Assembly (NCBI RefSeq): GCF_005405005.1
Contig: NZ_BJDH01000005.1
Coordinates: 124,001-188,000 of the forward strand
DNA from: Lactiplantibacillus daoliensis
GTDB taxonomy: Bacteria; Bacillota; Bacilli; Lactobacillales; Lactobacillaceae
DNA length: 64,000 bases
Direction of reading: 5' to 3'
The translations under genes were made by a program, and so were the position numbers. A model generated the notes under the pieces. The model searched no databases. It saw only the letters and a program-made list of their open reading frames with translations, and had not been told where the DNA came from. This document shows positions 3,179-58,589 of the stretch, piece after piece. How positions within the stretch are numbered: the first letter of the stretch is position 1; every line of letters starts with the position of its first letter.

Positions 3179-3191
3179 ATTGAGTCTTAAA

Positions 3192-3295
3192 GGTTGAAAG
3201 ACTAAAAAGTATCACAAATGTCGCAGTACCAGTAATCGTCTGGTTTTCACTGTCTGATTATTGACATGCAGATCGGTAATTTTAAACTTTCAACC
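3192..3295 (+). repeat. short (about 104 bp) MITE-like copy of the interspersed repeat family
   Basis: Bounded by perfect 9-bp inverted repeats, GGTTGAAAG at 3192-3200 and CTTTCAACC at 3287-3295. The first 40 or so bases (AAAGTATCACAAATGTCGCA and around) closely match the left end of the long copies at about 12101 and 57948. The last bases match the right end of the 57948-58446 copy. The roughly 400-bp structured core is missing. Reading: an internally deleted derivative of the same element, lying between pheT and the following terminator. Confidence 0.7.
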
Positions 3296-3308
3296 ATTAA
3301 TTAACTCA

Positions 3309-12021: not shown

Positions 12022-12183
12022 GGTAATTCCTCCAAAGTAGTTTTGATAGTCAATTAACACTTCCCCGGAGCACATTAATTGCTAACTGATTTTATTATAA
12101 CTTGAAAGACTCAAAAGTATCACAAATGTAGAAGTACCAGCAACCTTTACGTCCAAAATAGACTTACCTAAATTTTGCGCTCC

Positions 12184-12343
12184 GTCAGTCAAAACCGGTG
12201 TGCTGTGGGGGACGACGCTAGCCAAAGAACGGTCTAGCATCTCAATTCAAAGCCGATAAACCCGTCTTTGAATTGCCCCGCGAGCTTAGTCAACCAAGAA
12301 CGCTGACTAAGCTTGCTGACACCGCACACCGATTTTGACTGAC
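12184..12343 (+). other. structured module I of repeat copy A (possible RNA)
   Basis: A 24-base outer stem pairs 12184-12207 with 12320-12343 (22 of 24 paired). It encloses three hairpins: GCTAG/CTAGC; CAATTCAAAG/CTTTGAATTG; AGCTTAGTCA/TGACTAAGCT. The result is a four-way-junction layout. Whether it is transcribed is unknown. Confidence 0.5.
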
Positions 12344-12396
12344 TCCGCTAAGTGTAAATAACTGATTTATCTTTTAAAAATTGCTGGTTAGCCCGA

Positions 12397-12568
12397 GGTT
12401 GTTGTTGATAACATCGGACGTGCAGGTGGCGTTTGACCGGCGTTTCTTGCCGGTCTTACACCACGGACGGTCCGGGAGATTTGCGGTTTAGGCAAAGCTT
12501 CCGGGCGAGGCTCAAGACGTTTCTAAGGCTTGAACCGGTCCCTCGTCCGCATGTTATCGGCAACAATC
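12397..12568 (+). other. structured module II of repeat copy A (possible RNA)
   Basis: The outer stem pairs 12397-12420 with 12544-12568; the departures from Watson-Crick pairing are mostly G-T (G-U in RNA) plus one bulged base. Inner hairpins include GACCGGC/GCCGGTC (inside GTGG/CCAC), TTGC/GCAA and GGCTCAAG/CTTGAACC. Confidence 0.5.
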
Positions 12569-12612
12569 GGAAGCGGCGGTGATCGACTAGTTTTCATTTT
12601 AGATAACCAGTT

Positions 12613-12854
12613 AATGTGAATCTGTCTCGGCTTTGAAACTTTTTGATAAGATCTATTTTTATTCGGACCGAGTTTTAAAGATGCGTATAAATTCATAGTC
12701 GTAAGAATGCCAAATAAGGGGATTTATAGTACACTATTGATTGGTGAATAGGTACAGGGTAAAATAGTACCAGTTATGCAATGATGTCCAATTGCTAGTA
12801 GTATCTGGTAGTTGTTGAGAAATAGCGACCAAATTAAGAACGGGAGCCTGAGAA
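12613..12854. other. upstream region of the PBP gene
   Basis: 242 bases without an ORF. It contains A+T-rich stretches and possible -10 hexamers (TAAAAT near 12761), presumably including the promoter of the PBP gene. No clear operator is seen. Confidence 0.35.
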
Positions 12855-25669: not shown

Positions 25670-25743
25670 GTCACGGTAGCTCAACTGGATAGAGCATCCG
25701 CCTTCTAAGCGGAGGGTTGTGAGTTCAAGTCTCACTCGTGACA
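25670..25743 (+). tRNA. tRNA-Arg (anticodon TCT)
   Basis: 74-base cloverleaf. Acceptor GTCACGG / TCGTGAC with discriminator A, D-arm GCTC/GAGC, anticodon arm TCCGC-CTTCTAA-GCGGA giving anticodon TCT, and T-arm GTGAG-TTCAAGT-CTCAC. CCA is not encoded. It reads AGA/AGG. It has its own strong promoter and terminator. Confidence 0.95.
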
Positions 25744-31004: not shown

Positions 31005-31085
31005 TTTGTGGACTTCTACAGCTACAACCGCACGAATTGAGTATTAAGTTCAGCAATGACGCTTAATTTGGCGAGTCTAAGTGAT
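31005..31085 (+). ncRNA. probable L21 leader (cis-regulatory RNA of the rplU operon)
   Basis: The untranslated leader between the promoter and rplU carries CTACAGCTACAACCGCACGA followed by ATTGAGTATTAAG. This matches my memory of the conserved Firmicutes L21 leader motif that regulates rplU-rpmA. A covariance-model search was not possible here. Confidence 0.45.
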
Positions 31086-31110
31086 TCATAATTTAAGGAG
31101 GTGCACAAAC

Positions 31111-57876: not shown

Positions 57877-57888
57877 GTATTGTTAAAT

Positions 57889-57935
57889 TAAAAGGTCGAG
57901 ACAACTTGGAACATCCAAGGGTCTCGACCTTTTGA
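57889..57935 (+). terminator. terminator after thiN
   Basis: AAAAGGTCGAGAC / GTCTCGACCTTTT, an inner CTTGG/CCAAG, and little T-run beyond the stem. Confidence 0.8.
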
Positions 57936-58023
57936 TAATTGACTAAAGATTGAAAGACTCAAAAAACGTCACAGTACTAGTAACATTTACGTCTAAAGTA
58001 GCCTTGTCTAAATTTAGCGCTCC

Positions 58024-58184
58024 GTCAGTCAAAACCGGTGTGCTGTGGGGAACGGCGCCAGCCAAGGTGCGGTCTGACGCCTCAATTCCAAGCCGATAAA
58101 ACACGTCTTTGAATTGCCCCGCGAGATTGGTCAGCCAAGAACGCTGACTCATCTTGCCGACACTGCACATCGATTTTGATTGAC
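58024..58184 (+). other. structured module I of repeat copy B (possible RNA)
   Basis: The outer stem pairs 58024-58047 with 58161-58184. Inner hairpins match those of copy A, with paired changes: CAG/CTG here for TAG/CTA in copy A, and AGAT/ATCT for AGCT/AGCT. Confidence 0.5.
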
Positions 58185-58238
58185 TCCGCTTAGCGTAAGT
58201 AACGTTTTTATCCAAAAAAGAACTACTGATTAGCTGGA

Positions 58239-58412
58239 GGTTGTTGCTGATAGCATCGGACGTGCAGGTGGCGTTAGACCGGCGTTTCTTGTGCCGGCCT
58301 TACACCACGGACGGTCCGGGAGATTTGCGGTTTTGGCAAAGCTTTCGAGCGAGGCTCAAGACGTTCCTGAGGCTTGAACCGGTCCCTCGTCCGCATGTTA
58401 TCGGCAACAACC
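58239..58412 (+). other. structured module II of repeat copy B (possible RNA)
   Basis: The outer stem pairs 58239-58262 with 58388-58412, with G-T pairs and one bulged base. GACCGGC/GCCGGCC and GGCTCAAG/CTTGAACC hairpins lie inside. Confidence 0.5.
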
Positions 58413-58544
58413 GGAAGCGGCAACTTTTAACTTATAACTTTCAACCCTTAGTTTAAAATCAGAAAAATGACAAGCACTTCGAAAAAGGCTTGCCAGATTA
58501 TAAACTTTATAAAATTCACCACTCGAAAGTTGCCGAAAAGGGCA

Positions 58545-58582
58545 ACAAAAAACGCCACTCGCAAAAAAATGCGGTGACGGTT
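58545..58582 (-). terminator. probable terminator of rpmB
   Basis: On the minus strand, ACCGTCACCGC / GCGAGTGGCGT followed by TTTTTT; the stem has mismatches. Confidence 0.6.
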
Positions 58583-58589
58583 TGCTGCG

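What the first reader, a model, noticed from the sequence alone, without database searches (positions are those of the whole stretch)
57948..58446. Full-length noncoding repeat bounded by inverted ends: a possible structured-RNA mobile element
Seen: a 499-bp element with ends GATTGAAAG/CTTTCAACC and an interior that recurs at 12101-12576. It codes for no protein shared between copies, yet its centre folds into two large multibranched modules (58024-58184 and 58239-58412). Ordinary MITEs are hairpins or derivatives of transposase genes; two conserved four-way-type modules suggest the interior itself is selected as RNA. I do not know a named family that fits.
Basis: partly seen in the sequence, partly recalled or inferred. 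Interest (0 to 1): 0.85.

Follow-up and report, generated by a model that had tools for sequence, protein, structure and literature searches.

The report
Mobile element carrying twin folded RNAs
A short gene-less jumping DNA element, repeated many times in this lactic-acid bacterium, carries two mirror-image copies of an unnamed folded RNA whose shape has been kept by matching mutations across related species.

Summary
Window 57943-58451 is one copy of a non-coding element (consensus 562 bp) with 14-bp terminal inverted repeats (TIRs); 20 copies or remnants lie in 400 kb of this genome. In relative G020, near-identical copies have 7-9 bp target duplications (10 of 17 exact; mismatched control 0 of 650), and an intact IS4-family IS has the same TIR. 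So it is a MITE-type element, presumably moved by an IS4 transposase in trans. Its interior does not match the IS.

The two modules share one ~170-nt architecture in inverted orientation. Covariation supports the fold: 37 of 40 pairs have compensatory changes, 38 of 40 in a second set. A covariance model matches 97 of 397 sampled Lactobacillaceae genomes and no sampled genome of another family. Rfam has no match. G-U exceeds A-C in shared variants (54:18), not in private ones (66:57). I read this as RNA-level selection in spreading lineages, then neutral decay. A shortened unit also follows some IS110-family transposase remnants. What the RNA does is inferred.

The parts
57943..58451 (.). whole element, an old copy lacking about 50 bp near its right end
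   Evidence: TIR scan; profile match 57943-58450, profile positions 2-514 of 562; 40 genome matches listed
57943..57956 (+). left terminal inverted repeat, CTAAAGATTGAAAG
   Evidence: 1 mismatch to CTAAAGGTTGAAAG, the end of the IS4-family IS in G020
58021..58187 (-). structured unit A (module 1), sense on the minus strand
   Evidence: covariance model R1, 114.8 bits; fold
58188..58238 (.). 51-nt spacer between the 5' ends of the two units
   Evidence: interval between the R1 matches
58239..58412 (+). structured unit B (module 2), sense on the plus strand
   Evidence: covariance model R1, 141.5 bits; fold
58438..58451 (-). right terminal inverted repeat, CTTTCAACCCTTAG on the plus strand
   Evidence: 1 mismatch to the TIR
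12096..12651 (+). second copy, both units present, both ends degenerate
   Evidence: profile positions 3-553 of 562; 86.6% identity
12181..12346 (-). unit A of the second copy
   Evidence: R1, 114.3 bits
12397..12568 (+). unit B of the second copy
   Evidence: R1, 151.7 bits
3187..3300 (.). 114-bp derivative with both TIRs and no unit
   Evidence: TIR pair with 1 and 2 mismatches; left-end profile match 3188-3240

Best explanation
The element is a non-autonomous (MITE-type) DNA transposon. SHOWN: it has TIRs and target duplications, its TIR is that of an IS4-family IS, and its interior holds two units of one structured architecture, inverted, with their 5' ends towards the centre. INFERRED: an IS4-family transposase moves it by acting on its ends in trans. 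INFERRED: the units work as RNA; because the pair is inverted, transcription across the element in either direction yields one unit in sense, so function does not depend on orientation. INFERRED: the RNA serves the spread of the element rather than the host, because fold-keeping changes are enriched only among variants shared by several copies, while private changes look neutral. The step I think most likely is that the folded RNA, made at its own locus and perhaps bound by a protein, favours that copy's transposition or a tolerated insertion, for example by bringing transposase to it. That last step is a proposal (about 0.3).
For: Target duplications: G020 10 of 17 exact and 14 of 17 with at most one mismatch; G237 5 of 7 and 6 of 7; mismatched flanks 0 and 10 of 650. 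IS4-family IS with the same ends; related IS copies with the same or a near TIR in G017, G010, G359, G091. Covariation: (91.8% of cells paired, shuffles 66.9%; 613 double-change cells, shuffles 181; slid partners at most 44.1%). Conserved unpaired features: bulged A in 55 of 59 units, U in 58 of 59 at one side of an internal mismatch. Strand asymmetry in shared variants: G-U 54, A-C 18, other 10, against 66, 57, 66 in private ones; module 1 alone 33 to 8. Inverted arrangement in the loci with two or more units. In the IS110-linked cases the unit has the transposase's orientation, 10 of 10.
Against: Movement without two whole units happens: in G020 two sites with different target duplications share the same internal deletion in module 2, though module 1 is intact there. 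Module 2 alone gives 21 to 10 for G-U to A-C, p 0.07. The events are not corrected for ancestry. No transcript is shown and no promoter was sought by tool. The transposase was found in only 4 of 28 genomes at E <= 1e-40, not in the window's genome, so mobilisation is seen as a footprint only. The inverted homology of the two units is weak when only strict right-hand units are used.
Confidence: 0.68

Rival explanations
1. The units work as single-stranded DNA or cruciforms, bound by transposase, host proteins or at replication forks, not as RNA.
For: Inverted units put one sense unit on each DNA strand; long palindromes can extrude; G-T wobble in DNA could give the same asymmetry.
Against: Beside IS110 transposases the unit is single and always in transposase sense, 10 of 10, which DNA function would not need. 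Two unrelated transposase families carry it.
Confidence: 0.15
2. The covariation is an artefact of palindrome self-correction (template switching at imperfect inverted repeats) in an otherwise neutral MITE.
For: Inverted repeats can correct themselves, giving matched changes without selection; private variants look neutral.
Against: Self-correction is not strand-specific, yet shared variants favour G-U 54 to 18. It should remove the bulged A (55 of 59) and the internal mismatch, which are kept.
Confidence: 0.06
3. The units serve the host as 3'-end elements: bidirectional insulators, processing or stability signals between genes.
For: In C1 9 of 18 elements lie between convergent genes against 59 of 359 gene pairs (p 0.0015), 0 of 18 between divergent genes (p 0.09) (crude gene calls).
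Against: Private changes show no sign of constraint. The position bias is also what removal of harmful insertions would leave. Sites are not shared: between thiN and rpmB, 6 of 19 genomes have matches, in differing orientation and composition.
Confidence: 0.07
4. The unit is the guide (bridge or seeker) RNA of IS110-family elements, captured by IS4-type MITEs.
For: A shortened unit follows IS110-family transposase ends in 10 of 28 loci (Pfam PF02371 E 9.2e-22 for one of them). IS1111-type seekRNA lies downstream of the gene (PMC11187229, passages).
Against: Of 30 loci with related transposases only one, a re-fetch of one of the ten, has a complete unit, while 21 of the other 29 have the same right end CTTGACTAAKCGTAGGAA. 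The published consensus is a stem-loop plus two internal-loop stem-loops (PMC11208160, passages), unlike nested junctions.
Confidence: 0.04

Closest known systems
MITEs mobilised in trans by IS4-family insertion sequences
   Same: TIRs of the IS, 7-9 bp target duplications, no gene, high copy number, intergenic sites
   Different: The interior is not a deletion derivative of the IS and holds a conserved pair of structured units
IS110/IS1111 bridge RNA or seekRNA
   Same: Structured RNA-type region of a mobile element; a shortened unit lies downstream of IS110-family transposase ends
   Different: Sister IS110 copies with the same right end lack it; different fold; here it lies between IS4-type ends
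IS200/IS605-linked structured RNAs (HEARO and similar; recalled)
   Same: Conserved RNA fold travelling with transposable elements
   Different: No Rfam match; TIRs and target duplications, which IS605-type elements lack (recalled)
Alu-type non-autonomous elements (recalled)
   Same: A parasite without a gene whose folded RNA is kept in the spreading lineage while inserted copies decay
   Different: DNA-transposon ends, bacterial, no sign of reverse transcription; a likeness of logic, not of descent
REP/BIME palindromes (PMC3733652, search listing only)
   Same: Many palindromic intergenic repeats
   Different: 20-40 bp there; here about 550 bp with complex folds and IS4-type ends

Membership tests
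IS4-mobilised MITE | TIRs shared with an IS4-family IS | tested here: met
   CTAAAGGTTGAAAG at both; transposase NF049925 E 5.9e-138
IS4-mobilised MITE | target-site duplication of the IS type | tested here: met
   7-9 bp in G020 and G237, 7 bp at the G020 IS; not seen at the window copy
IS4-mobilised MITE | no coding capacity | tested here: met
   frameshifts in 19 of 30 and stops in 25 of 30 copies in the longest frame
IS4-mobilised MITE | interior derived from the parent IS (true only of deletion-derived MITEs) | tested here: not met
   no profile match of the element to the IS of G020 or G017 at E <= 10
IS4-mobilised MITE | moved by the transposase in trans | not testable with these tools
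   needs a transposition assay
known Rfam family | match to a covariance model | tested here: not met
IS110/IS1111 bridge RNA or seekRNA | lies in the noncoding region of each such IS | tested here: not met
   10 of 28 loci chosen by similarity to one fragment; complete in 1 of 30 related loci
IS110/IS1111 bridge RNA or seekRNA | loops complementary to target and donor | not tested
   no loop-to-target comparison was run
structured RNA | compensatory changes beyond chance | tested here: met
   with shuffle and slide controls
structured RNA | transcribed | not testable with these tools
   no RNA-seq here

The most novel reading that the evidence does not exclude
The unit is a transferable RNA module of mobile DNA: a ~170-nt RNA with nested junctions taken up by unrelated transposable elements (an inverted pair in IS4-type MITEs, a shortened single unit downstream of some IS110-family transposase genes, a third carrier in G091), which helps its carrier to spread as RNA, a DNA-transposon counterpart of the folded RNA of Alu-type elements.
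Probability: 0.33. Interest if true: 0.92.

Novelty: new variant of a known kind. Interest (0 to 1): 0.76.

Why it matters
Bacterial MITEs are usually taken as transposon ends plus filler. Here the filler is a conserved structured unit that Rfam does not hold, matched in 97 of 397 sampled Lactobacillaceae genomes and at 35 places in 464 kb of this genome. Its variation separates selection in spreading lineages from decay after insertion. That makes a clear question testable: can a structured RNA raise the success of a non-autonomous DNA transposon? It also gives a model for annotating these food and gut bacteria.

Tried and rejected
Rfam: no family in the modules. Plasmids and phages with the window element, plasmids with two divergent elements: no match. 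One exact-pattern scan of viral contigs: none. A protein-coding interior was rejected. A gene between the two units was not systematically sought; a central promoter was looked for by eye only. Bridge/seek RNA identity was considered and set aside. The comparison of the two G000 module consensus sequences was not significant (score 98; shuffles mean 84, maximum 102). An automatic search for ends around single units in 20 loci gave one weak candidate. The wobble test was first made on cells, which over-count shared ancestry, then on events. In the target-duplication count, loci without a detectable TIR pair (such as L159, L167, L178) were not scored, and TIR pairs in L188, L189 and L198 were left out. 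Literature: eight searches showed no description of this element in their listings; the library lacks most subscription papers. I saw passages of PMC2267715, PMC12306157, PMC11187229 and PMC11208160 and only listings of the rest.

Full report
WHAT IS THERE. The element at 57943-58451 is bounded by 14-bp inverted ends. The second window copy, 12096-12651, is 86.6% identical (438 of 506 aligned bases), and an ends-only derivative lies at 3187-3300. In the genome (2.63 Mb, 19 contigs) one DNA search listed 40 matches, all that it scored of 119 first-look candidates; apart from the query itself they are 83-91% identical. In 400 kb of contig C1 a profile of the element matched 20 separate places: 18 elements or large pieces and 2 lone left ends. 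That scales to about 130 per genome, remnants included. C1 plus window, 464 kb, hold 35 units by covariance model, about 200 per genome if even. The consensus is 562 bp; the window copy lacks about 50 bp near its right end.

MOBILITY. In G020 copies are nearly identical and flanked by 7-9 bp direct repeats: 10 of 17 exact, 14 of 17 with at most one mismatch; in G237 5 of 7 and 6 of 7; mismatched flank pairs 0 and 10 of 650. Only loci with a TIR pair were scored, and six TIR pairs in L188, L189 and L198 were left out. A TIR search in four genomes led to a 1567-bp IS in G020 with the same ends, a 7-bp duplication and a 457-aa transposase, NCBIfam NF049925 IS4 family, E 5.9e-138. A 1509-bp relative in G017 has the same ends, broken frames and no duplication. 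Transposase copies in G010, G359 and G091 also have the same or a near TIR; the one in G020 contig 3 does not, and one in G359 shows a single end. Four of 28 genomes have the transposase at E <= 1e-40; the window's genome does not. This fits old copies here and fresh copies in G020. The element profile does not match either IS at E <= 10, and five IS loci given to the covariance model had no unit.

THE TWO UNITS. Both fold alike: an outer clamp, a purine-rich internal loop, a stem of about 20 bp, then nested three-way junctions with three arms. Homology in inverted orientation: a profile of 20 strictly right-hand units scores 11 of 18 left-hand units above the best of 360 shuffled controls, all in the predicted orientation, ties it for one and misses six. 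A profile of 41 units, including left-hand units of G006, G007 and G035, finds 18 of 18, 18.8-61.3 bits. The direct comparison of G000 consensus sequences was not significant. I take them as homologous, bridged by intermediate genomes. Fifty-nine units from 12 genomes were aligned; RNAalifold gives 40 pairs, 37 with compensatory change. 91.8% of cells pair (shuffled 66.9%) and 613 cells have double changes (shuffled 181); sliding the partner lowers pairing to at most 44.1%. The model R1 found 99 units in 60 sources and 80 in 62 more. On these two alignments 38 of 40 pairs covary, but both are fitted to the model. In loci with two or more units the leftmost is on the minus and the rightmost on the plus strand; L041 and L097 have one more minus unit.

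DISTRIBUTION. R1 matches 97 of 397 Lactobacillaceae genomes, 10 of 40 genera, at E <= 1e-8, the window's own included. In 395 genomes of the order 21 match, all in the same family; in 398 of the class only the window's own. These large searches used stricter filters that lose weak matches. An exact 35-base pattern found Lactiplantibacillus daowaiensis, L. fabifermentans and an uncultured Lactobacillus assembly.

WHICH STRAND, WHEN SELECTED. In unit sense, variants shared by two or more copies of one genome give G-U 54, A-C 18, other 10; private variants give 66, 57, 66 (30, 10, 10, 8 and 8 copies in five genomes). Module 1 alone: shared 33 to 8; module 2: 21 to 10, p 0.07. The structure was predicted on the plus strand, which favours plus-strand G-U and so works against module 1, yet module 1 is the stronger. 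Events were not corrected for ancestry. I conclude that selection acts on one strand in lineages that spread and is not visible in single inserted copies.

OTHER CARRIERS. Matches of about 50-75 bits lack the last arm. In 10 of 28 loci of G009, G012, G151, G310 and G403 a complete unit of this kind follows an IS110-family transposase end, on the same strand, by about 75-100 nt (Pfam PF02371 E 9.2e-22 for the G009 fragment). These loci were chosen by similarity to a fragment that lay beside a unit. Of 30 loci with related transposases one has such a unit, a re-fetch of one of the ten; 21 of the other 29 show the same right end. So I treat the unit as cargo there. In G384 two IS110 copies have unit pieces on both sides, as if inserted just before the last arm. 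In G091 near-identical single units occur without the TIR.

CONTEXT. None of 18 elements in C1 lies inside an ORF; 9 are between convergent genes, 9 tandem, 0 divergent, against 59, 240 and 60 gene pairs by crude gene calls (p 0.0015 for convergent, 0.09 for divergent). thiN was found beside rpmB in 19 of 20 loci; R1 matches lie between them in 6 of 19 (G000, G013, G016, G004, G014 and, weakly, G011), in differing orientation and composition, and in none of the other 13, G020 among them.

MECHANISM. Shown: a transposition footprint, shared ends with an IS4-family IS, a covarying fold, inverted duplication. Inferred: mobilisation in trans, RNA as the acting form, benefit to propagation. Of 12 deletion derivatives in C1 none shares both breakpoints with another (my reading), but G020 has two with the same deletion at different sites, with module 1 whole. 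So one unit may suffice, or units may not be needed for movement; I cannot decide.

VERDICT. A real, widespread MITE-type element with a twin structured unit that Rfam does not hold. The kind of carrier is known; the cargo and its arrangement were not described in anything my searches showed.

Noticed in passing
L276 and L290 (genome G384); in L276 1302-1439 and 2877-3026: Two IS110-family copies have pieces of a unit on both sides, as if inserted at the same point just before the last arm; units may serve as IS110 target sites.
   Followed up: partly
L218-L222 (genome G091): Near-identical single units lacking the last arm, with common flanks and no IS4-type TIR: a third, unidentified carrier.
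   Followed up: partly
L240, L241, L248 (genomes G310, G403): IS110-family remnants appear to share one left boundary inside the transposase gene and to sit beside terminator-like hairpins, so they may be mini-IS110 elements (read by eye).
   Followed up: no
L097, L099, L100, L148 (genomes G007, G388): Unit pairs with spacers of about 390-510 nt, and in L097 an extra unit in the same orientation; the spacers were not examined.
   Followed up: no
window 57877-58589, the thiN-rpmB gap: The same gap holds units in 6 of 19 genomes in differing orientation, so it seems to be a repeatedly used landing site.
   Followed up: partly
window 25670-25743 and 31016-31088: A tRNA and a ribosomal protein L21 leader, the only two Rfam gathering-level matches in the window.
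   Followed up: no
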